DNA of 64,000 bases from Loripinus fragilis (Eukaryota > Mollusca > Bivalvia > Lucinida > Lucinidae): NCBI GenBank assembly GCA_964019695.1, contig OZ026520.1, forward strand, positions 34,638,620 to 34,702,619, in the 5' to 3' direction. Position 1 is the stretch's first letter. Each line of letters starts with the position of its first letter. Position numbers and translations under genes: made by a program. Of this stretch, positions 174-51,595 are shown piece after piece. The notes under the pieces are model-generated. The model saw only the letters and a program-made list of their open reading frames with translations. It was not told where the DNA came from and ran no database searches.

Positions 174-1056
174 CTAGAGAAAACATATGCTTTTTAAAGC
201 TTTCTTTGTTTTTTCTTTGAATACTGAGCTCATCCAAATGTAGAAGAATGGATTCGCAAACGTATTTATTACAAATGTATACTTTCCGAAAAGAATGAAC
301 ACCTCTCCTGCTTCAGATCTGTGATTTTTGGTCATCTCTCTATAAACATATGCTACCCATGTTGGTATCCATGACAACAGAAAAACCAAGGTGACAGCAA
401 ACATAATTTGAGTGGTACGGTTGACTTTTCTGGCACTGTGTGAACGAATAGCGCCAGGCTTCGCTGTTGTTGGTGGGTTGCTGTAGCTTAGGTCTTGATT
501 TGTTTTTGATGATTGTAGGCTAGTACACCATTGACCATGTGGGCTTGGTTCGGTAGTTGTACGTGGCATAAGCAAGGAATCCCATTTCTGCTCTCCAGCT
601 TTGGTGTTATTTATAGCACGTTGATTAAGCACCATCTCGGATACATTCAATGGTACAACTTTATTTGTACCTGCCCTCTTCATTCCAGGTTTTAGCTTTC
701 TAATTTTAGAGCCACCAACAGATCGTCGGGTTTCAGTTGAATTGGTTGGCATCGCTTTCTTCGTATCAACATGTTCCATGACGCCAGTAGCTGGGTGTCC
801 GCCTCGGTATAATTTTGTTCTGATCGCCTGCGCAACTTTAGCATACGCTACACATACCACTATAAACAAAGCCACGTACGTGAAGATGAGAAAAGCATGC
901 ACTATGAAAACAAAATCAGATCCAGCTTTGTTTACACAGAACTTGTCATTTTTCTCTAAGGTTATAATCGCAGGAATGTTGACGATGAAAGCCACTGCTG
1001 TGATGATAAGACACGCTCTGAAGGCTCTAACTGGTGTGATATATCTTCCATGTGGC
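174..1056 (-). CDS. Class A GPCR, coding exon 2 (TM4-TM7 and C-tail)
   Basis: This is the last coding exon of a rhodopsin-like G-protein-coupled receptor in the plasma membrane; it joins in frame to 2917-3311 (codon AA+G, Lys132). The acceptor is a pyrimidine-rich tract ending in CAG at 1059-1057. The stop is TAG at 176-174, giving 425 aa in total. Visible parts are TM4 (about 143-163, Pro160), an ECL2 cysteine (172) that would pair with Cys101, TM5 (about 179-206, Tyr203), an ICL3 of about 140 residues rich in Ser, Thr and basic residues, TM6 with SWIP (Trp361, Pro363), and TM7 with NPFFY (400-404) followed by a helix-8 stretch. The usual TM4 tryptophan and TM5 proline are not visible. The fold and the long ICL3 resemble peptide or amine receptors of invertebrates, but the ligand cannot be assigned. 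I see no AATAAA on this strand in the 173 bases that follow the stop within the window. Confidence 0.88.
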
Positions 1057-1188
1057 CTGAAAGATATAAACGTGAAATTACATAATAATGTACAAAATCT
1101 TCCAATATACGCCCATGCTGTTGTATCCAGCGGGCTAAAGGTCTAACCTTTGGCCTGAGTTTACATCAAAGTATCGCGTGTCTGTGTG

Positions 1189-1193
<5 letters not shown>

Positions 1194-1224
<31 letters not shown>
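1194..1224. repeat. (AG)n microsatellite
   Basis: About 15 AG units in the GPCR intron. No function is suggested. Confidence 0.95.
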
Positions 1225-1225
<1 letters not shown>

Positions 1226-1226
1226 A

Positions 1227-2256
1227 GTGAAGGCTCTGGCGAAACTCGTTGTGGAGAATCGATAAAATGCTCGGCAAGAATCGCATTTTATCGTTTTTCC
1301 CAAACTCGTTTAATAAATTCAATTAATCATGAGCACTCATGTATGAATAAATTATTGCAACTTTCAAGGCACAAGGATGCAGAGGATTTCATCTATACAA
1401 TGGGCGACATATAATTCTAATGAAATTAGCTATCATAATATAACATAACATAACATTTCTTTATTGATCAAGCTCAGATAACATAATTTGTTGCTATCAG
1501 TTGAGTGGAACTATCACCTCGGATACATAAGATTGAAATGTCAACTCTTCTAACATGATTTCACTGTAGTACATTCATATTTGACACACGTGTTGCCCGA
1601 ACGTTTTATGTAAAAGTGGATTTTTGTTAAAAATACCCCTTTTTTCAAAGCCAAATCGGTGCCACGGGGTTGTCTGCGGTTTGTGATTGTGGTATTTCCT
1701 AACCATACTCACTATTATCAATCAAACACCACAATAGCATCATTTATGTACAGACAATAGCCTTTTGGTGTTGTAGAAACCATTAGGCTACGCTATTAAC
1801 AAATTCGGAAGATTCTACAGAGTTACAGAAAAAATCGTCATTTTCAAGAAAATCAAAAATTACAAAACTTGAGCCATGAACTTAAGCAGCGATTGTTTTA
1901 TCAAAAACTTTTTTTGATCCCAAACTTTGACTTTCTTAGCAAAAATGGCAAAATAAACTGGGTTTCTGTCGTATTGTCTTGTGAAATGCATCACTTGTCT
2001 ATTGGACAGGGGTTAACATTATCACCTATGTAAAATTATCAGGTGTTCCATTAAATATTTTGAGCAGTATTGTATTTTGTATTTGCATTGTATTTTGCAC
2101 ACGGATTGCCTGATGTGTGTAGACGCCAGTAATGGTTTCGCATTGCTTATATGATCTTTGTTTCAAAGGTCAAGGTCAAACTTACTTAATATCTGAAGGT
2201 ACTGGCGAGTGTTTCACCTATGCGAGGCGAATGAGTACAAAATTTGGTGTATTTAA
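1227..2256. other. GPCR intron, no recognised feature
   Basis: AT-rich intron sequence between the microsatellite and the first MITE. I see no conserved reading frame, tandem array or inverted repeat. Confidence 0.6.
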
Positions 2257-2691
2257 CCCATGAAAACCTAGCGCCCTTTTTGTGGGACATAGACAGTGTA
2301 GATCCAGATCAGGATCTCATTGTGGAACATAGACAAACAGTGCAGATCCAGATCAGGGTCTCTATTGTTTGCTGACAGAATGTTATATTAAAATTTGAAA
2401 AAAGACAAATACCAAATAACAACCTAGCGCCCTTTTGTGGGACTTAGACAGTGTAGATCCAGATCAGGGTCTCATTGTGGAACATAGACAAACAGTGCAG
2501 AACCAGATCAGGGTCTCATTGTGGGACATAGACAAACAGTGCAGATCCAGATCAGGATCTATCTCTACTGTTTGCTAACAGAATGTTCTATTAAAAATTG
2601 AAAAAAAGACAGATACCAAATAACCCTTAAAACGGAAATGGACTGGTCCAATTGATAAGAGTGGGAAATTCCATTCGGCTTAAAAAGGTTA
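2257..2691. repeat. MITE family B, rearranged copy
   Basis: Family B is a roughly 230-bp non-autonomous element whose ends read AACCCATTTA... and ...TATGGGTT. Its middle is a palindrome around GATCCAGATCAGGGTCT. This copy is longer because the segment from TGTGGGACATAGACA to AGATCAGGATCT is repeated several times. Other copies lie near 11.2, 38.1, 53.8, 55.1, 56.5 and 59.5 kb. This one lies in the GPCR intron, six bases from a family A copy. Confidence 0.75.
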
Positions 2692-2697
2692 AGCAAA

Positions 2698-2905
2698 TGA
2701 GCCACAACATGATATTTCCAACAAAGTGGTATGTGCGACCGCAGACTGATCAGCGCCTTTGCTGGTCGCTTAAATATTCTATGACTGTAAAACTACTGAC
2801 CGAACCTCATTTGAGGTTTCTAAGCTTAAAAGGAGGCTGTACAGGCTCGTCTGAATCTACACTTGTCAAAATACCACATTGTTTGAAATCACGTGTCACG
2901 GCTCA
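2698..2905. mobile_element. MITE family A, copy 1, beside a splice donor
   Basis: Family A is a roughly 240-bp element with inverted ends TGAGCC...GGCTCA extended by a diverged arm containing TTTCCAACAA/TTGTTGGAAA. It has an internal palindrome around GCGCGTATGCGC. AAAT occurs at both ends as a likely 4-bp target duplication. The right end lies 11 bases inside the GPCR intron, next to donor GTAAGT. Confidence 0.8.
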
Positions 2906-2916
2906 AATAAACTTAC

Positions 2917-3311
2917 TTGCAAGTCTTGAAGAATCTGTCTATCGCCACCGTGGTTAACAGCAATGTCGAAGACAGCATGGTGACTGCCTTAAGGAAATAG
3001 TGTAGCTTACATGTGATATCAGTAGCGATCGCCTGCCAGTATCCCAGGTGATAAATCGTGAATATGGGGATGTTGAATACGGCGAACAAGTTATCGTTGG
3101 CAGACATGAAAAAGACAAGCCAGTCTGTACTTGTCTTAAATTTATTCTGGGTCTCCACAAGAAGAATCAGACTGTTTCCGCCGATTGCCAAAATGGCACT
3201 GATAAGAAGAAATGTGCAAAGGATTAATTCGCACCATCTTGGCACTGCAACTGTCTCTCCCAAGGCTAAAGTCATGTTATTATAAATAACAGTACTGTTT
3301 TCCAAGTCCAT
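2917..3311 (-). CDS. Class A GPCR, coding exon 1 (N-terminus to TM3)
   Basis: First coding exon of the receptor completed at 174-1056. The ATG at 3311-3309 directly follows a T-rich run (A-rich on the coding strand) and is the only start giving a normal short N-terminus with two N-glycosylation sequons (Asn5, Asn12). TM1 (about 28-52) has the GN motif (Asn46). TM2 has Asp73 and Pro82. Trp92 lies in ECL1, and Cys101 is the conserved disulfide cysteine. TM3 ends in DRF (125-127) in place of DRY. The exon ends at 2917 with donor GTAAGT (2916-2911), phase 2. The intron (1057-2916) is 1,860 bases. A non-coding 5' exon upstream is possible but not visible. Confidence 0.87.
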
Positions 3312-3773
3312 TTTTTTTTTTTTTTTGTTTTTTTGTTTTTCTTATCCTAAAATCTAGTAGTTATTCTACAATTTTGTTTTAGAGACTTTTGCGACTTTAT
3401 CTGAGCATGATGAAAGTTCGACTAGTACTGCTCATAAAAAACATGGAGAAAGTTTTATATCCTCGAAACCTGATGTCCAAGTATAGCCCATTCTTTACTG
3501 GAAAAAAAAAGCTAAAAGTGTAGAACCCGATGATGAGAAGCCACCGAACTAGCTCTCAGCATATCACTAGGGTCTGCACTGTGTTGTTAGATAAAAAAAG
3601 TTAACGAAGTATGGTTTTGATATTTAAAACAAAGACTTAAGCCGAAGACAAGTATTGCTTGAGCAACGAGAAGTTAATTTGATGTTTGATTAACGTTTGT
3701 CGATATTCAATTTAAGAAGTTTGCTTGATTTTTGATTTACGTTTCTCGATATTCAAGAAAAGAAAGAAAGGTG
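3312..3773. other. GPCR upstream region
   Basis: A T-rich tract (3312-3345), then AT-rich sequence. A run with TCGATATTCAA motifs (3685-3755) recurs inverted at 5785-5925. Neither a promoter element nor a 5' UTR exon can be identified. Confidence 0.5.
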
Positions 3774-22752: not shown

Positions 22753-24019
22753 GGAAGTGTTTGATCCCCAGCTCCAATGTACAAAGATACCCCCGCTGTA
22801 AGCTAGCTGACGCACAGTGGATACATGTATTTTGAATTTCTTTACTTTAATATTCCTGTAGGGTTATTATGAAAATCTCAATAGTTGTCACACTTTTTTG
22901 ACAAATAGTGCAGACCCAGGTCAGACCAATAGAGGAAAAGTTACAGTCTGATGAGGATATACTCTTTTGGCAGGGTTCATTCTAGCATGAAATTATATGG
23001 GGCCATATCATACTATAGCAGGGGCTATTTACCAAAACATTGCGGCAGAGAAAAAATTAAAGGTTTATTTATTGTGCATGCACAGTGCAACATTCAAAAT
23101 GATAATGTTATTTAATATGGTATGTAAATAATTTCTCATGGCGCTGATTCTAATGATGTGTTCTCATGCGGAGAAACCCTATTATATAAGATAATTATCG
23201 GGAAAATACATTACACTTCGAAGCCAATGTCTTCTTCCGAGATTAAACTGACAATTTGTTTACATACATGACATTTCCTGGTTTGTACAGTGAGATATAT
23301 TACCCTTCATTCATAATACTACGAGATTTAACAATAAGTTGCTATATGCATTGTTGAATTTCTGTTGTTGAAACAGTGAACTTTAATGTTTAGTTGTTGT
23401 CGATCTGACAATAATCTGTCAACCATTTTTTCCAAAGCCAATTGTAAACCATGCAACAATTGGATAATATGCTTCCCATCAACCAATGAACAGCGTCATT
23501 GCTTTGGCGTGCTGAATCAGGGAGAGCCGTTAGACTGGTTCTCTCTCCCCTACACTAGCTATTGTTACGGAACCATTTTAAAAAGAGCCGTGTGCAAACC
23601 GAGTTATACGAAAATTGCCTGAAAGGCCGTTTTTTTTCTTTATGATTAACAAAAAGAATGATAATCAACTCCTTAAAATAACTAGAGATAGATTAAAAAA
23701 ACAGTCACCAACTGATATCGATATATCGGCCATTTAGGATGGATAAGACACAAACCCACAAACACGTATTGGCTTTTATAAAAGTTAGTAAACAGCTTTT
23801 TGAGGCATTTTAGCTTACATGTAGATAACACTATTCAGTGTTTGGATAGGGTAGAGAGATTTGAACATCAGCTCATTGCTGAATTAAGGAGTAAACCACA
23901 TAATCAAGTACAATTTCATTTTGAATTAGACCCTATAGATCTGTGTTTTTGTGCAAAATTAATTTTTTGTACGTGTTTGGTAGAAATATTTCTGCATCTG
24001 TCTGTCCGTCACAAAATCG

Positions 24020-26060
24020 TGTCAGCTCTATAACTTAATAACCATTTGAAATATTTCAAAGATACTTCACACATTTGTAAAGCACATTCAGATGACGTGT
24101 CATGCACAAGAATCATAACTCTTACATGTATATTTTTTTCAAATTATTCCCCTTGTAACATGAATAAATGCAATTCTTTAATCGACTCTGTAAGTTGAAC
24201 ACTGTTTAAGCTATTTGGTTGAAGCTTCATACACTTCTACAGCACAAAGAGACAATGCGTCATGCACAAAAACCATACATCTGCTTTGGATATTTTTGGA
24301 GTTATTTCCCTTGATCATTTGCAATGCTATTACGTGTCGACTCGCATTTGATAACCCTTAGAGGTATTTCAACGAAACTTCATACATTTATAAAGCACTT
24401 TCAGAGGTTGTGTCATGCATAAGAACTATAACTCTTGTATGTTTATTTTTCAAACGATTCCTCTTGTACCATAACTAAATGCAATTTTTGTCCACTCTGT
24501 AAGTTGCACACTGATTAAGCTAATTGATTGAAACTTTTTACACTTCTAGAGCACAATAGGATAATGCATCATGCACAGGAAACATAACTCTGCTTTCGAT
24601 ATTTTTGGAGTTATTTCCCTTTGACAATTTGCAATGCTATTTTGTGTCCGCTCTATAACTTGAATACTGTTTGAGGTATTTCAACAAACTTCATACATTC
24701 GTAAAGCACATCCAAAAAACGTGCCATGCACAAGAACCATAACTCTTGCATGTTTTTTTTCAAAATATTCTCCTTGTAGCATAAACAACAGCAATTCTGT
24801 GTCCACTCTGTAGGTTGAACACTGTTAAAGCTATTTGGTTGAAACTTCTTACACTTCTAGAGCACAATGAGATAATGTGTCATGCACAAGAATCCATAAC
24901 TCTGCTATGGGTATTGTTTGAGTTATTTCCTTTTGATCATTTGCAATTCTATTTCGTGTCAACTCTAACTTGATAACCCTTAGAGGTATTTCAACGAAAC
25001 TTCATACATTTATAAAGCACTTTCAGAGAATGTGTCATGCATAAGAACTATAACTCTTGTATGTTTCTTTTTCAAACGATTCCTCTTGTAACATAACTAA
25101 ACGCAATTTTTGTCCACTCTGTAAGTTGAACACTGTTTAAGCTATTTGATTGAAACTTTTTACACTTCTAGAGCACAAAAAGATAATGTGTTATGCGCAG
25201 GCAACATAACTCTGCTTTCGATATTTTTGGAGTTAGTTTCCTTTGATAATTTGCATTGCTATTTTGTGTCCGCTCTATAACTTGATAACCGTTTGAGGTA
25301 TTTCAACAAAACTTCATACATTCGTAAAGCACATTCAGAGAACGTGCCATGCACAAGAACCATAACTCTTGCATTTTTTTTTCTCAAAATATTCTCCTTG
25401 TAGCATAAACAACAGCAATTCTTTGTCCACTCTGTAAGTTGAACACTGTTAAAGCTATTTGGTTGAAACTTCTTACACTTCTAGAGCACAATGAGACAAT
25501 GTGTCATGCACAAGAATCCATAACTCTGCTTTGGGTATTGTTGGAGTTATTTCCTTTTGATCATTTGCAATTCTATTTCGTGGCAAATCTAACTTGATAA
25601 CCCTAAGATGGAATTTCAAAGAAACTTCAAACATTTATAAAGCACTTTCAGAGAATGTGTCATTCATAAAAATTATAACTCTTGTATATTTATTTTTCAA
25701 ATCATTCCTCTTGTAACATAACTAAATGCAATTTTTGTCCACTCTGTAAGTTGCACACTGTTTAAGCTAATTGATTGAAACTTTTTTTACACTTCAAGGG
25801 CACAATAAGACAATGTGTCATGCACAGCAAGAATAACTCTGCTTTGGATATTTTTGGAGTTATTTTCCTATGGTCATTTTCAATGGTATTTTGTGTCCAC
25901 ACTGTTACTTGATAACCGTTAGAGGTATTTCAACAAAGAGTACATTGTAAAACACATTCAGACCACGTTTCATGCACAAGAACCATAACTCTTGCATGTT
26001 TATTTTTCAAATTGTTTCCCTTGTAGCATAACTTAACGCAATTTTGTGTTGTTGTTTTTT
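24020..26060. repeat. Satellite, 156-bp monomers with about 622-bp higher-order unit
   Basis: About 13 monomers, each with a TGTCATGCACAAGAA-type core spaced 152-160 bp. Two monomer types alternate: A has CTTCATACATTTGTAAAGCA, and B has CACTTCTAGAGCACA. Identical variants recur every 622-624 bp (TGATAACCCT at 24349, 24971, 25595), so the array grew by copying four-monomer blocks. Confidence 0.9.
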
Positions 26061-26844
26061 TTTTCTTAAAAGTGGGGGCATCTGTTCTTTCGTGAAAAAA
26101 CAGTTCTAGTTTTTTTATATATTTTATAGCATATTTGTATGTGAATCTGAAGGCATTACATGGGACAGTACTTTGTGCACATACTTTCGCTTGTAGCTGA
26201 CAACAACCTTTCTTGAAGGAGGAGAATGTCCTTTGAAATTAGTTCATGATCAATCTCCACGAAAGTATGGAACCAGGAGGTATTAAACTCGTAACCCCTG
26301 GATCTGCAGTCAGACGCTACAGACTAAGCTAACAGACCCGGTCAAAATTAAGTGATATAACCAGTGGAATATCTAGTATTACCAGTGATTCAAGTGTAAT
26401 ATCAGTGGTACACCAGTGGTAATACCAGTGGAAATCAGTGGTACAATTTTGTGTTATAACAAATGATAAACCAATGGTTTCCATTGGTATATCAGTGGTA
26501 TACCAGTGAGTTCCATTGGTATATCAGTGGTATACCAGTATTTTCCAGTGGTATACCACTGTAGATCAGCGGTAAAATTTGGTGGTATTACCAGTGGTAT
26601 ACTAGTGTTTACCAGTGGTATTATCAATGGTATACCGGTGGTATACCACTGGTAATCAGTGGTAAAATTTGGTGGTATTACCACTAGTTTCCACTGATAT
26701 AACAATGGAAATCAGCGGTATTACCACTGTTTTACCACTGGAATCCAATGTTTTCCAGCGGTAATACCACCAAAGGGTTTATCACTGGTTTCCACTGGTA
26801 TACCACTGGTAATACCGCTAGTAATTTCAGAGGCATTTTCTATA

Positions 26845-28928: not shown

Positions 28929-31552
28929 ATGCCTCGGTTACATTTGCTACTGTCGTTGTACGATTTATTTGTCTACGATTTTCCCTACGATTTTTTCGGC
29001 ATCGTAGGCGGCTATAAGCTACGACGTTTGTGTTTACATTGCTTGCGATCACCTTACGATTTCTTCGGCGACAAACTTGGACAAAACCTTACAGAGACCT
29101 TGCGGATATCGTACGACAACCGCAAGGTTATCGTACAATCATCGTGTTATCTTCACTACCTCCCTCTATAAATCGCACGATGTCCGTACGATGACCTTGC
29201 GGAAGTCGCAAGGAGTCGGTATGTCGTGTAATTATCTGCATGGATTTAAACGGCCATCCATGTTCATTTTTGGATTCCATTTGGAATGTGTTTCAAAGTC
29301 ATGTGATCACAAATCGTGCTATGAAGAGGCTAGTGTTTTAGTTAAACATGGTCCCAAGGTATTGAACAGTGTGATACGTTTGTGTATATTTTAATGTCAA
29401 TTTTTAAGTTTTGCAATTTTCATAAAGTTTAAATCACAGAATATAACAACAACCCCTTTTTTTTAAATTTCACTTTTATAATTCGAAAAGTATCACTTTA
29501 ATTGAAAATATAAAGGTGCTTTACGAGGGTCAGTCAAAAATAACTGAGCCCTACCTCATAACATTTTAGTTTGGTATTGTGGACACCAAATGTGATTATG
29601 TTCTATAAGTATTATATGTCATAGATGTTTTGATTCTGAAGAATTATCCTAGTGAAGCTTCTATTATGGTTGCTAGGCAACTGAAGATAGTCAGTCAGAG
29701 TGATGCGTTCACGATCTCAACCACCAGGAATTTAAAGTATGTCTTTAAAAAGCTTGTGTGCTTGATAGTTTTTCTGAAAGACATATTAGACATTTATTTA
29801 AATAACATATATCATATTATCTTTTCATTACACTTGGTTTGTTAATGTTTAGGTGAACATTGATTGCGCGCGTTGCCTAGCAACACAAAACGTCTAAATT
29901 CCACAATTTTTAAAGTACAGGAGGATTCTGTTGCCATGGAAACAAAATTGTGCATTTAAATTAAGAAACTTAATATGTCTGAGGGTTGGTTTGTGTATGC
30001 AGTACTGTTAAAGCGTTAATAGGCTAATGTTTTGTGTTTTCTGTTAAAATTGTGTAAATATAAATGTGGGTGGGGTAATTTATAGGACTTTAGGCTTGTT
30101 AAAATTTGATAAATTCTGAAATCAAACTACTACATCATCTATAATTTGGAATCAGTTGGTTTCTGTATTGTGACACTGAATAGGTACATGTTATAGATAT
30201 AAAACGACAGTGAATAAAGCCGTGCTTAAACAATACTGTTTCCATAGCAACGCTTAGATTTAGATGTATCACAGCGTGAACGCACCCCTTTGACAGGTCA
30301 TATTCTGTTGCCTAGCAACCGTTACAAAAAGTCTACCAACAGAAATAAATTAGGCGATATAATAGATGACATATAACTGCAATGGAATATCATCTAAATA
30401 TATGTCCATTTTACTTTATTTAAATGTTATGAGGTAAGGCTCAGTTATTTTTGACTAACCCTCGTAATTGTATCGTCTCGTAGATTCAGCATAGACTAAA
30501 ACGCTTATTATGATTTTGTTCAGTTTAATCACCCAAAGGCACTCTACGGCCAGCAGCACATAAAATTTTCGTCATAAGCAAAAATGAAGTCGTTGCATGC
30601 GAATAAGAAAGGTACTGACCAGAATGCGCTTTCTTCCACCCAGCCTGGTCAGCACATTTGCCATTCGTTTTCAGTAAAATTTATTTTGTAGAACATTCAT
30701 TCATTCAAATTTCAATGTTCCAACTAGTCACATGTTCTCACTACGAGACCCATATATTTTATTCCTTGAAGTAATACTCAAATTCAAATTCCAGAGTTAT
30801 AAATCACAAAAGATATCTGGACTTTTTATTAATCTTATCTCATTTATTGAACCCCTATCCAACCAGCATTTTATATACTGAAAATGCATATGCATTTCAC
30901 GTTAGGTGCATATTTTCACTTGCACTTCAGACAATTTTACCATGGAAGCATACTCTATGGGCCGTGATTAGACCGCTTCCATCAGCAAACTGAACTGGGT
31001 CCATATTGAGTCACTCTGAGTGGTGGTATTAGAGACATCGCCTGAATACAAATATTGAAATGAAACAAACAGCTATATAATGATAACCAATATATACCTG
31101 TCTGGAAATTGTTGGCACGTCGCAAGGCGCCCGCACGATCATTGTGCCATCGCCCTGGGGTTACCGCAGGATGATCGTCCGATGTCCTTACGATTTTATG
31201 GGCCCTGCAAGGGCATCGTGCGGCGACCTTGCGGGCTCCCTACGACTACCGCAAGAGTCTACGATCATTTTTTTGCCAAACTGACAATCTAAAACCCTGC
31301 GTTGTCCTCACGATCACCGTGCGGTGCCCGTACGGGGATCGTACGATGTCACTGCGATGTGTCTACGGGCTACGGGCTTACGATTTTTTCAACTTTGTCA
31401 TTGTGCGGAGTTAAACAAAATCGTAGAGGCCACGATGCCCGTAAATCCGTACGATGATCGCAAGGTCTCCCTGCGGAGGCCGCACGGAAACGGTGATTTG
31501 TATATCGTACGGACATCGTTTACTCGCCGTAAGGCAAATGTAACCGAGGCAT
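28929..31552. mobile_element. 2.6-kb TIR element with CGTACGAT-motif arms
   Basis: Perfect 19-bp inverted ends (ATGCCTCGGTTACATTTGC at 28929-28947 and its complement at 31534-31552). Each end opens into a GC-richer arm (about 290 and 440 bp) of degenerate CGTACGATG / CCTTGCGG words in shifting order. The open frames there are by-products. A mariner-like MITE (29524-30464) sits inside. Confidence 0.7.
29524..30464. mobile_element. Mariner-like MITE X, copy 1, with five X-box-like sites
   Basis: A 941-bp element flanked by TA (29522-29523 and 30465-30466), with inverted ends CGAGGGTCAGTCAAAAATAA (the right end has one change). There is no transposase. It contains palindromes of the RFX X-box form GTTGCC(A/T)(T/A)GG(C/A)AAC at 29669, 29872, 29930, 30238 and 30307. 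The second copy is at 50666-51595. It is nested in the 28929-31552 element. Confidence 0.85.
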
Positions 31553-39883: not shown

Positions 39884-40338
39884 TGAGCCGCGAAATGTGA
39901 TTTCCAACAATGTTGCATTTTGACAAGTGTTGACTCAGACGAGCTTGTTCAGTCTCCTTTTAAGCTTAGAAACTCCAAATTATGTTCTGGCAGTAGCTTA
40001 ACAGTCATAGAATATTCAAGCGACTAGCAAAGGCTCTGATAAGACTGCGAGCATGCGCAGGCTGATCTGAGGCTGTGTTTGTTTTTTGTTTGTTTGATTT
40101 GATTGTTTACGTCCCATCAACAATCTTTCAGTTATATAGGGACGAGTCTTCCTGGGTTGAACCAGTACTAAGCTAGGATAACTGTGTCTTGCTCAAGGAC
40201 CACAACGCAGTGACGCCGGTGAGGCTGGAACCCGCGGTCCATTGGTCTCGAGTCAAGCACTCTACCACTGAGCCACTGCGCTCCCTATCTGAGGCTTTGC
40301 TGGTCGCACATACCACATTGTTGGAAATTTCATGTCGG
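39884..40338. mobile_element. MITE family A, copy 6, split by a SINE
   Basis: TGAGCCGCGAAATG at the left; CCACATTGTTGGAAATTTCA at the right. The middle is interrupted at ATCTGAGGCT by SINE C (40075-40286). It lies in intron 2, 81 bases after exon 2. Confidence 0.83.
40075..40286 (-). mobile_element. tRNA-derived SINE C, full-length copy
   Basis: The minus strand starts GGGAGCGCAGTGGCTCAGTG (A box TGGCTCAGTGG), then a B-box-like GGTTCCAGCC, then a tRNA-unrelated body and a tail ending in CAAACAAA. The target duplication ATCTGAGGCT is at 40065-40074 and 40287-40296, inside a family A MITE. It is presumably mobilised by LINE machinery. Confidence 0.88.
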
Positions 40339-49325: not shown

Positions 49326-50649
49326 CGAGGGCTGTTCAAATATGAATGCAAGTAGCTTCATAATTTTCGTCACATATATGCTACGACAAAATGGTATACG
49401 TTTCTATAAAGGATTATATGTCATCTTTAAACTGGTACCTGACCTAAATCCAAATACAGTATACTCATCGAGTTATCGCCCTTTGAATGAGGGTCACTTT
49501 AATATACTAACAAACTCAATGCTTCGAACATACCAGTGATATAGAAAAGCGTAAAATTCTTTGATAAATCGGTGAAATTTCTTGAAATTTTTAAGGAAGT
49601 ATCCCCATATACTTATATAATGATTCTGTGAACGTGGCAAAAATCCGACATGTTTTTGTTAAATTACATGGAATCGTTTTCACTAAAGTCTCCTTATGTT
49701 TGCAAATAAATGGTAAACAAAACACCACCTTTCAGTTTTCAGTCAAACTTTTCTGTAACAAAATGCACGAAGCAACAGTTAAACTAGTTTTAACTCAAAG
49801 ACAATATGTTGATCGCTCATACTGAGTTGTTGATACAAATCATTGAAGGATAATGGGTAATTTTAAACGCTGAACAGCATTTTTATTAAGGCAAAACTGC
49901 CTTAAGTGAAGAGGTTATAGAACTTACACTTAATTTTGTTGCGATAACATTACGGTTTTAATCTAAATTTGAACGTTACCTTTAAGACTTACCAAAATAG
50001 GCATTATTTACAATAAAATTACTCACCTGGTCTTGAGGACTAGACAGATTGAACATATTTTAATTAATGTCAGCACGTCATTAAGAAGTAGAAAAATGCT
50101 TGAAAAATGATATAAAGTGTGATAACTCTGTAAATAGAGAACGGAGCGTTTTGAAAACTTCCTTATGACATATTAAGCATGTTTTAAGCAAAACGCAAAG
50201 AAAAATACACAGCGATATTCATTATTGCATCATCAGTAGATAACTCAAAATGACGTTTATCGTAAAATTTATGACGTCACAAACGTGTCTGTTTACTTGA
50301 GATTGAAACAGGATTATATAAACTTTTTCCTGCAAGCAACTTTGTCAATGTATCTTAAACTTGCATCTAAAATTTGGTGCCATTTTGTCTCAAACTTACA
50401 AAGATATTATTCTATATCTGCACATGTACCAAAACATGCATGGCAATTTGCTTCTGAAAAACGCTAGTATACAGAAATGGCCTTTATATAAGCGTCTGTA
50501 GCTTGAGAAATAAAGTGATTTATTTCTTTATGTTTGGTGCCATTTTAAAAGCGACGAATAGCTCTTTCCAGAAAGGTATGACATTTTGTGGTATCATATA
50601 TGTGAAGAAAATTATGAAGCTACTTGCAGTCATATTTGAACAGCCCTCG
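49326..50649. mobile_element. 1.3-kb mariner-like element with about 54-bp TIRs
   Basis: Flanked by TA (49324-49325 and 50650-50651). The ends CGAGGGCTGTTCAAATATGA match inverted for about 54 bases with two or three changes. The length suits an autonomous mariner, but no DD(D/E) transposase is recognisable on either strand, so it is decayed or non-autonomous. Confidence 0.82.
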
Positions 50650-50665
50650 TACATCGGTTGTATTA

Positions 50666-51595
50666 CGAGGGTCAGTCAAAAATAACTGAGAGTTGATTCA
50701 TATCTCTTACGTAGGCTAACGTACACTAGTGAAATTTGGCACATGCATGCAATGAACTATCCCGCGTCAGAATATGCAATATACAAGACCATGCAAAGTA
50801 AAGATTGTTGTTGCTTAGAAACCAAAGAATGTGAAATACCGTCATGCGTTCACGCTGGAATATAGCGTTGCCATGGAAACACTATACATCTTTAAGTTAC
50901 ATAAACTTGTGCATTTGTTGCAAATACAGTATGTGAATGTATTTTGTGAAATGCAACAACTGGGATTGAGGCGTTGGAATTTTGATACATAAATAAGATG
51001 AAAATTAACTAAATTTTCTGAAAATTTTCACCCAAAAATATACCCCACCCACCAGTTACGGTTCATTTTAGAGCAATATTATCAACTAAGTATCATATCA
51101 TATGACCATTTAATTGTATTTTTAGCTATTGGTTTTGACATCTGAATGCATGTCATGAATATTCCCAGGAATAAACGGTTGCCATAGCAACAAAATCTGG
51201 TCTTTTAGTTAAAGTTGGAATTTCCATCGATTTTGGTTGCTAGGCAACGAAATTTGCATGTATTGTATTTACTACCTATTGCACTTCTTCAAAACATTGC
51301 TAACACATTGTTTGATACAATTAAAGAGATAAAGGGTCGGTTATTATACTGTTTTAGATTTGAAATGATTTTAAATTCATGGCTGCTTAGTCAGAAGTGT
51401 CGTCAGCGCGAACGCACATGGCTGAGAGACGGCTTTCGGTTGCCTAGCAACAGCGCATTGAAGATGATAAGACGCCAACTTCTATATGTAATGAAGCACA
51501 GAGGCTCATTCTATATGTGTATAAAGTTTCAGCCAAAACTGCCGACCCAGTAAAAAGATACTAACCAACTCTCAGTTATTTTTGACTGACCCTCG
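50666..51595. mobile_element. Mariner-like MITE X, copy 2, with five X-box-like sites
   Basis: A 930-bp relative of 29524-30464: TA-flanked (50664-50665 and 51596-51597), ends CGAGGGTCAGTCAAAAATAA inverted, no transposase. X-box-like palindromes lie at 50810 (weak), 50867 (GTTGCCATGGAAAC), 51178, 51236 and 51439. It begins 14 bases after the neighbouring TIR element's TSD. Confidence 0.87.

What the first reader, a model, noticed from the sequence alone, without database searches (positions are those of the whole stretch)
29524..30464. MITE carrying five RFX X-box-like palindromes (copy 1)
This TA-flanked 941-bp element holds GTTGCTAGGCAAC (29669), GTTGCCTAGCAAC (29872 and 30307), GTTGCCATGGAAAC (29930) and GTTTCCATAGCAAC (30238). 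Each fits the RFX X-box form GTTGCC-N2-GGYAAC. Five such 13-14-mers in under 1 kb is far above chance. The element could spread RFX (ciliary or neuronal) binding sites, or use RFX-type proteins itself.
Basis: partly seen in the sequence, partly recalled or inferred. Interest (0 to 1): 0.75.

Follow-up and report, generated by a model that had tools for sequence, protein, structure and literature searches.

The report
Jumping DNA with conserved RFX sites
Two abundant families of short, gene-less jumping DNA in an animal genome keep five look-alike docking sites for the host's RFX gene regulator at nearly fixed positions while most of the DNA between the sites has changed beyond recognition, which suggests that the elements use this host protein to spread.

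Summary
The TA-flanked element at 29524-30464 has five RFX X-box-like palindromes at the stated places, far above chance. A second element (50666-51595, reverse orientation) shares the 25-bp terminal repeat and carries five palindromes at the same offsets within 1-2 bp, except the last (10 bp). Between the two families six of nine spacers have 25-36% identity (shuffles about 28%), yet eight of nine spacer lengths agree within 1 bp. A TGCGTTC motif lies exactly 22 bp inward of the outer palindrome in all four arms.

The whole-genome search (1.99 Gb, unnamed) gave 1788 and 1581 candidate copies (40 of each scored) and 3202 exact palindrome-N21-23-TGCGTTC modules, against 0 for the reversed-pattern control. 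In 40 family-1 copies, palindromes vary less than spacers and terminal repeats; shared variants are nearly absent from them (1 against 24 expected).

Best reading: non-autonomous mariner-type transposons that depend on host RFX-type protein. The outer palindromes, 144-145 bp from each end, probably pair or open the element for a transposase supplied in trans; the inner ones act enhancer-like. RFX binding and transposition were not tested, and no autonomous partner was found.

The parts
29522..29523 (.). TA target duplication, left of element 1
29524..29548 (+). 25-bp terminal inverted repeat, element 1 (family 1), left
29524..30464 (+). Element 1: 941-bp MITE of family 1; 1788 genome candidates, 40 scored, all 40 full length at 90-100%
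29669..29681 (+). X1 palindrome GTTGCTAGGCAAC, offset 145 from the end
29704..29713 (+). TGCGTTCACG motif, 22 bp inward of X1
29872..29884 (+). X2 palindrome GTTGCCTAGCAAC
29930..29943 (+). X3 palindrome GTTGCCATGGAAAC, 58 bp after X2 start
30066..30077 (+). Conserved GTGGGTGGGGTA (CACCC-box-like; the label is recalled)
30238..30251 (+). X4 palindrome GTTTCCATAGCAAC
30275..30284 (-). TGCGTTCACG motif of the right arm (CGTGAACGCA on +)
30307..30319 (+). X5 palindrome GTTGCCTAGCAAC, mirror of X1 at 145 from the right end
30440..30464 (-). Right terminal inverted repeat, element 1, followed by TA
50666..51595 (-). Element 2: 930-bp MITE of family 2; 1581 genome candidates, 40 scored; same architecture, most spacers near random identity to element 1
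50810..50822 (-). X5 of element 2 (GTTTCTAAGCAAC on -; family consensus GTTGCTAAGCAAC)
50845..50854 (+). TGCGTTCACG, right arm of element 2
50867..50880 (-). X4 of element 2 (GTTTCCATGGCAAC on -)
51041..51052 (-). GTGGGTGGGGTA of element 2
51178..51191 (-). X3 of element 2 (GTTGCTATGGCAAC on -)
51236..51248 (-). X2 of element 2 (GTTGCCTAGCAAC on -)
51407..51416 (-). TGCGTTCGCG, left arm of element 2
51439..51451 (-). X1 of element 2 (GTTGCTAGGCAAC on -), offset 144
49326..50649 (+). Control: 1324-bp TA-flanked element with a related terminal repeat (CGAGGGCTGTTC) and no X-box or TGCGTTC

Best explanation
Elements 1 and 2 are non-autonomous Tc1/mariner-type transposons (MITEs) that have built host RFX-type binding sites into their working anatomy.

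SHOWN: TA duplication; shared 25-bp ends; no recognisable gene; five X-box-like palindromes, two TGCGTTC motifs and one GTGGGTGGGGTA kept at near-fixed positions; most spacers near random identity but kept in length; palindromes nearly free of shared variants in the family-1 copies examined and depleted of them in family 2.

INFERRED: a host RFX dimer occupies each palindrome. The symmetric outer module (end - 119/120 bp - X - 22 bp - TGCGTTC) sits identically at both ends. RFX dimers there, with a second protein on TGCGTTC, bring the two ends together and/or keep the element open in RFX-expressing cells such as the germ line. A mariner-type transposase made by another element can then synapse and excise it. 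The asymmetric inner sites (X2, X3, X4, GTGGGTGGGGTA) would act enhancer-like. Copies that lose sites stop spreading, so selection acts on the mobile lineage more than on each insertion.
For: (1) Unbiased search for exact blocks of 8 or more bases at offsets within 12 bp between the two elements returned 9 blocks: both terminal repeats, X1, X2, X4 (two pieces), GTGGGTGGGGTA, CAGCGTGAACGCA and AAATTCCA; about 0.5 blocks expected per comparison. 285 random window pairs had 0-2 such blocks of 9 or more, the elements 7.
(2) In all four arms X1 starts at 145/145/144/144 and TGCGTTC at 180/180/179/179, gap 22 each time. TIR-X1 spacer identity between elements is 26-32%, shuffle means 27-28%.
(3) Family consensuses: X-boxes 62 of 67, all motifs 142 of 149 identical (sums from the rows); six of nine spacers 0.25-0.36, three short ones higher (22 bp 0.64; 45/44 bp 0.39-0.55; 23/12 bp 0.50-0.67).
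(4) Family 1, 40 copies: shared variants in X-boxes 1 against 24.3 for random spacer sets (0 of 5000 as low). Family 2, 30 copies: 9 against 18.2 (33 of 5000).
(5) 3202 exact X-N21-23-TGCGTTC modules in the genome; reversed-pattern control 0.
(6) Two spacings between half-sites (1 bp in X1, X2, X5; 2 bp in X3, X4) coexist and are kept site by site in both families, as the RFX form N0-3 allows.
(7) The neighbouring element with a related end has no X-box; below for other CGAGGG starts.
(8) Precedents: Rfx2 at chromatin-loop anchors (PMC5245798, passages); RFX2 in spermatogenesis (PMC2797782, passages); RFX1/3 on the AAV terminal repeat (PMC5760533, passages).
Against: No binding, chromatin, expression or excision data. 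No autonomous partner or transposase was found, so transposition in trans is assumed. A transposase search was sent once and not answered, and three long candidate copies proved to be MITEs with insertions. The inner sites are not symmetric, which a pure end-pairing role does not predict. Spacers are not all random: in the window copies T-X2 (0.35), X1-T (0.45) and X2-X3 (0.44) exceed shuffles (34, 11 and 22 of 1000 shuffles as good), and a gapped global alignment of the two elements scores 798 against a shuffle maximum of 357, with 69% identity in gap-inflated columns, so ordinary homology explains part of the shared layout. Private variants are also depleted in X-boxes (ratio 0.64 and 0.52), in family 2 about as much as shared ones, so selection on individual copies, or my use of best-scoring copies (40 of 1788 and 30 of 1581), cannot be excluded. 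In family 2 X-boxes vary slightly more than terminal repeats (0.0204 against 0.0153). A test for AT periodicity (nucleosomes) in the spacers was not significant at any of seven periods (lowest 20 of 300 shuffles, at 10.2 bp).
Confidence: 0.55

Rival explanations
1. Host-level use: the elements were adopted as movable enhancers. They spread RFX sites to host genes (ciliary, sperm or neuronal), and natural selection on the host keeps the sites.
For: Private variants in X-boxes are fewer than expected (0.64 and 0.52 of expectation). In the fetched loci, elements hold 188 strict X-boxes in 65,432 bp, against 14 in 189,694 bp of flanks, 7 of which lie in a tandem neighbour copy. Helitrons carrying heat-shock elements in Caenorhabditis are a precedent (PMC6927752, abstract start seen in the listing).
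Against: Selection at single loci would not fix the same sites at the same offsets in the source lineages of two families, about as tightly as the terminal repeats needed for mobility. With well over a thousand candidate copies per family, most insertions are unlikely to be useful (inference). Position near genes was not tested.
Confidence: 0.15
2. Transposon-protein sites: the palindromes are recognised by the transposase (or another element-encoded protein), not by RFX, like inner repeats of IR/DR transposons.
For: The outer module is mirrored at both ends at fixed distance, as inner direct repeats are in Sleeping Beauty (PMC7827188, passages) and 11-bp subterminal repeats in the P element (about 100-bp spacers; PMC7776569, passages).
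Against: The terminal repeat contains no copy of the palindrome (by eye). Half-site spacing varies (1 or 2 bp), which fits RFX dimers. In family 1 all five sites match the animal RFX consensus exactly or with one mismatch. Inner sites are asymmetric.
Confidence: 0.15
3. Captured promoter or enhancer: the X-boxes are cis-regulatory sites inherited from the autonomous ancestor or a host gene, giving transcription or open chromatin; end pairing plays no part.
For: A mixed cluster (X-boxes, TGCGTTC, GTGGGTGGGGTA) resembles an enhancer (inference). RFX sites are present in viral enhancers (PMC5760533, passages).
Against: A non-coding element has no known transcript to make, and mirror placement at both ends with a fixed 22-bp gap is not an obvious need of an enhancer.
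Confidence: 0.25
4. Shared descent only: the sites are conserved because the families are young or share an ancestor, without selection.
For: Family-1 copies are on average 5% from consensus (30 copies), so much identity is simple descent; the two elements are homologous overall by gapped alignment.
Against: Most spacers of the same age have diverged to near random identity between families and carry far more shared variants within family 1.
Confidence: 0.02

Closest known systems
Tc1/mariner-derived MITEs (Stowaway-like in the general sense)
   Same: TA duplication, short terminal repeats, no recognisable gene, about 1600-1800 candidate copies per family
   Different: Interior constraint: palindromes and spacings kept while most spacers randomise; ordinary MITEs are conserved mainly at the ends (general knowledge, recalled). 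The related element at 49326-50649 lacks the sites.
P element subterminal inverted repeats (PMC7776569, passages)
   Same: Short inverted repeat about 100-120 bp inside a 25-31 bp terminal repeat, at both ends; a host protein acts at P-element DNA
   Different: P elements have 8-bp duplications; here TA, and the repeat is an X-box-like palindrome with three more copies inside.
Sleeping Beauty IR/DR ends with HMGB1 (PMC7827188, passages)
   Same: Inner binding site per arm, host cofactor helps pairing, TA target; superfamily Tc1/mariner
   Different: The inner site in Sleeping Beauty is a second transposase site; here it is unrelated to the terminal repeat.
Helitrons carrying heat-shock elements in Caenorhabditis (PMC6927752, abstract start in a listing)
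   Same: DNA transposon family carrying binding sites of one host factor
   Different: As far as the abstract start shows, reported as diversification of a host response; whether sites sit in a fixed architecture was not seen.
RFX1/RFX3 sites in viral enhancers and the AAV terminal repeat (PMC5760533, passages)
   Same: Inverted-repeat RFX (EF-C) sites in viral DNA, and an RFX-bound sequence in a terminal repeat
   Different: Viruses, not a transposon; no five-site array seen in the passages.

Membership tests
Tc1/mariner-type MITE | TA target-site duplication | tested here: met
   TA on both sides in 30 of 30 family-1 copies, 9 of 10 more, and 22 of 30 family-2 copies (several of the 8 others have ends that the local alignment cut short)
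Tc1/mariner-type MITE | Terminal inverted repeats | tested here: met
   25 bp, matched 24 of 25 (element 1) and 25 of 25 (element 2) between ends
Tc1/mariner-type MITE | No transposase gene | tested here: met
   Longest stop-to-stop frame 78 aa in element 1 (not scanned) and 114 aa in element 2; that frame and two others of element 2 have no Pfam match at E 0.001
Tc1/mariner-type MITE | Mobilised by a mariner transposase | not tested
   Transposase search not answered; no autonomous copy among three long candidates
RFX X-box | Consensus GTNRCC N0-3 RGYAAC | tested here: met
   3 of 5 exact, 2 of 5 with one mismatch (by hand) in element 1; consensus
RFX X-box | Bound by an RFX dimer | not testable with these tools
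   needs EMSA or ChIP
P element | 8-bp target-site duplication | tested here: not met
   flanks of 30 copies share TA only
Sleeping Beauty-like IR/DR | Inner repeat is a copy of the outer transposase site | tested here: not met
   Scan for the terminal repeat with up to 8 mismatches finds no inner copy in either element

The most novel reading that the evidence does not exclude
A eukaryotic DNA transposon whose ends include obligatory binding sites for a host transcription factor: RFX dimers at a fixed 144-145 bp from each terminus, with a second factor 22 bp further in, act as a host-made part of the transposition complex. Mobility is thereby tied to cells that make RFX (sperm and ciliated lineages).
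Probability: 0.3. Interest if true: 0.9.

Novelty: new variant of a known kind. Interest (0 to 1): 0.72.

Why it matters
MITEs are usually seen as passive DNA with functional ends only. Here more constrained bases lie inside the element than in its ends, and they look like sites of one host regulator. That makes it directly testable whether a host transcription factor can be a working part of a eukaryotic transposon. It also shows how thousands of strong RFX-type sites can be seeded in a genome, possibly rewiring ciliary or sperm gene control. The pattern (changed spacers, fixed motifs and fixed lengths) suggests a sequence-only way to look for such dependencies in other transposons.

Tried and rejected
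Rejected: simple chance; hairpin or foldback as the reason for the palindromes (the full element folds as one long imperfect foldback, z -9.2 against 20 shuffles, but I read that as the work of the paired arms, not of the 13-mers; not tested apart); a nucleosome ruler (no significant periodicity); an autonomous relative among long module pairs (three fetched, all MITEs with insertions); an MHC class II-like X-Y promoter (the kept motif 22 bp away is TGCGTTC, not CCAAT; by eye only).

Led nowhere: exact scans of viral contigs for the terminal repeat and the module (0 hits). A looser module gave 16 viral and 5 bacterial loci, with no terminal repeat and one or two X sites each; I take these for chance, without a control. 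Paper searches for RFX sites in transposons or MITEs and for the motif letters themselves listed none that is about such an element, judged by titles and abstract starts (one search showed 20 of 66 papers); this covers only that open-access library. A protein search did not name the host. Queries did not complete: the terminal repeat followed by GTTGC, L097, the mariner transposase family, the genome count of GTTGCTAGGCAAC.

Partial lead: a third, more diverged group with ends CGAGGGTCATCCAATA (L086, L097) has X-boxes at 131 and 193, or 143 and 200 (also 359 and 749), from the end; no right end was found for either. The search with the L086 arm found 912 candidates, 40 scored, 2 at 91-100% and 38 at 71-78%. 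Four of these were fetched; three lack the terminal CGAGGG and keep one palindrome.

Dropped or weighed rows: 7 of 14 flank X-boxes were set aside because they lie in a tandem neighbour copy (L080/L091); 2 of the other 7 are the third-group pair in L086. In one search, 14 TACGAGGG starts were listed; 4 have an X-box within 420 bp, of which two are family-1 copies with a gap in the terminal repeat and two are the same L086 locus listed twice; the 10 without X-box are 7 distinct starts, some of which may be chance octamers. Family analyses used the best-scoring 40 of 1788 and 30 of 1581 candidates. One search was run with about half the copies unoriented; its conservation figures are replaced, and only its flank readout is used.
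Full report
WHAT WAS CHECKED. The strict published X-box form GTNRCC N0-3 RGYAAC (PMC10530576, passages) occurs 7 times in the 64-kb window, 6 of them inside two elements that make up 2.9% of it. Second-order Markov windows average 0.32, with a maximum of 2 in 60. The two 14-mers in element 1 deviate from the strict form by one base each. With a looser score the window has 11 sites, 10 of them in the elements; Markov windows average 3.5.

TWO FAMILIES, ONE PLAN. A self-comparison of the window with blastn aligned only the terminal repeats of element 1 with a second element at 50666-51595, but that element also carries five X-box-like palindromes. Turned around, it lines up with the first (0-based offsets): X1 145/144, TGCGTTC 180/179, X2 348/347, X3 406/404, GTGGGTGGGGTA 542/543, X4 714/715, GAACGCA 754/744, X5 783/773, lengths 941/930. 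The TIR-X1 spacer is at random identity (31 of 119 ungapped, 757 of 1000 shuffles as good; gapped 216 of 300) yet 120 and 119 bp long. Other spacers of the window copies keep some likeness: T-X2 56 of 161 (34 of 1000 shuffles as good), X1-T 10 of 22 (11 of 1000), X2-X3 20 of 45 (22 of 1000). A gapped global alignment of the whole elements scores 798, shuffles at most 357, so the two are homologous. In the family consensuses the nine spacers have lengths 120/119, 22/22, 158/158, 45/44, 122/123, 160/159, 23/12, 22/22, 120/119. Ungapped identities there are 0.25-0.36 for six of them; the three others are X1-TGCGTTC 0.64, X2-X3 0.39-0.55 and the 23/12 one 0.50-0.67. Within each element the two arms resemble each other more in the TIR-X1 spacer (0.57 and 0.45) than across elements (0.26-0.32), while all four arms keep X1 (one in a variant form) and TGCGTTC. 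X5 of the window copy of family 2 is that variant; the family consensus is the intact palindrome GTTGCTAAGCAAC.

UNBIASED SEARCH. Exact blocks of at least 8 bases at offsets within 12 bp between the two elements number nine: both ends, X1, X2, two pieces of X4, GTGGGTGGGGTA, CAGCGTGAACGCA and AAATTCCA. About 0.5 such blocks of any length are expected from Markov sequence. In 285 pairs of other window stretches, 244 had no block of 9 or more, 38 had one and 3 had two; the elements have seven.

THE GENOME. Rhodopsin-type receptor pieces in the window make it an animal (inference). Element 1 has 1788 first-look candidates, of which 40 were scored, all full length at 90-100%. Element 2 has 1581 candidates, 40 scored. 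All 30 first-fetched family-1 copies, 9 of 10 further ones, and 22 of 30 family-2 copies have TA on both sides. Of 30 family-1 copies, 24 keep all five palindromes, 5 keep four and 1 keeps three. The composite GTTGCNNNGCAAC-N21-23-TGCGTTC occurs 1596 + 1606 times exactly; the pattern read backwards occurs 0 times. In the rows listed (the first places only, on one contig), read by eye, two have spacing 23 and the rest 22. In the 70 family loci the elements hold 188 strict X-boxes in 65,432 bp, and the flanks 14 in 189,694 bp, of which 7 belong to a tandem neighbour copy.

SELECTION ON WHAT. In 40 family-1 copies the mean minor-allele frequency is 0.0097 in X-boxes, 0.0180 in terminal repeats and 0.0597 in spacers. 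Variants shared by two or more copies number 1 in X-boxes against 24.3 in random spacer sets (0 of 5000 as low). Private variants number 24 against 36.8 (160 of 5000). In 30 family-2 copies the frequencies are X 0.0204, terminal repeats 0.0153 and spacers 0.0414; shared variants 9 against 18.2 (33 of 5000), private 20 against 36.7 (2 of 5000). The private deficit remains outside CpG/TpG/CpA context (0.61 and 0.50). The strong deficit of shared variants in family 1 suggests that lineages which lose X-boxes do not propagate. The weaker private deficit may reflect some selection on copies, or the use of top-scoring copies. In family 2 the two deficits are similar in size, so the separation rests mainly on family 1 and on the comparison between families.

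CONTROLS AND RELATIVES. A 1324-bp TA-flanked neighbour of element 2 with a related end (CGAGGGCTGTTC) has no X-box and no TGCGTTC. Of 14 other TACGAGGG starts in the window and fetched loci, 10 (7 distinct) have no X-box within 420 bp; the 4 with one are two family-1 copies with a gapped terminal repeat and one third-group locus listed twice. This third, more diverged group with ends CGAGGGTCATCCAATA has X-box pairs at 131/193 (L086) and 143/200 (L097) from the end, which recalls X5 and X4 of family 2 at 144/201. A search with the L086 arm gave 912 candidates, 40 scored, 2 at 91-100% and 38 at 71-78%. Of four fetched stretches, three lack the CGAGGG end and keep one palindrome, and no right end was found for L086 or L097, so this is only a lead.

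HOW IT MOST LIKELY WORKS. The conserved set in each arm is end, X-box at a fixed distance, 22 bp, TGCGTTC. Its mirror symmetry resembles the subterminal inverted repeats of P elements (about 100-bp spacers; PMC7776569, passages) and the inner repeats of Sleeping Beauty, where a host protein, HMGB1, helps pairing (PMC7827188, passages). RFX proteins dimerise and Rfx2 peak pairs are enriched at both ends of chromatin loops (PMC5245798, passages), so RFX pairs could hold the two ends together. RFX2 acts in male germ cells (PMC2797782, passages), a useful place for a transposon. RFX1 and RFX3 also bind the AAV terminal repeat (PMC5760533, passages). I therefore favour a host-RFX-assisted transposon, with end pairing or opening as the job of the outer modules and an enhancer-like job for the inner ones. 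Binding, the identity of the TGCGTTC factor, the transposase and the tissue are all inferred.

LIMITS. No autonomous partner was found: three long module pairs were MITEs with insertions, and the transposase query did not complete. Copies are best-scoring subsets. The novelty statement rests on five searches of an open-access library, judged by listings.

Noticed in passing
49326-50649: A different 1324-bp TA-flanked MITE with long ends (56 of the first 60 bases matched) and one TGACGTCA site; it ends 14 bp before the TA of element 2.
   Followed up: partly
L080/L091 (G000:C658:40639-42487): Two family-2 copies in head-to-tail tandem, sharing a border.
   Followed up: no
L099, L100, L101: Family 1 and 2 copies split by insertions of about 1.6-1.8 kb; L099 matches the family-1 consensus at 86%.
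   Followed up: partly
L094, L095, L096: Three near-alike repeats that carry a decayed arm (end-like start plus GTTGCTAAGCAAC) without the terminal CGAGGG, as if the arm had been captured by another repeat.
   Followed up: no
L045:2847-2916: GTTGCCTAGCAAC with a partial X-box about 56 bp further (by eye), outside any recognised element; spacing like X2-X3.
   Followed up: no
24017-26045: Tandem array of a 311-bp unit, 6.5 copies.
   Followed up: no
26396-26683: Short tandem arrays built on ACCAGTGGTAT-like units, rich in palindromes.
   Followed up: no
174-3341 (-): Two rhodopsin-type 7TM receptor gene pieces (Pfam PF00001).
   Followed up: partly
40211-40282 (-): tRNA-like match (32.7 bits, gathering 29) not called by ARAGORN; possibly a SINE.
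   Followed up: no
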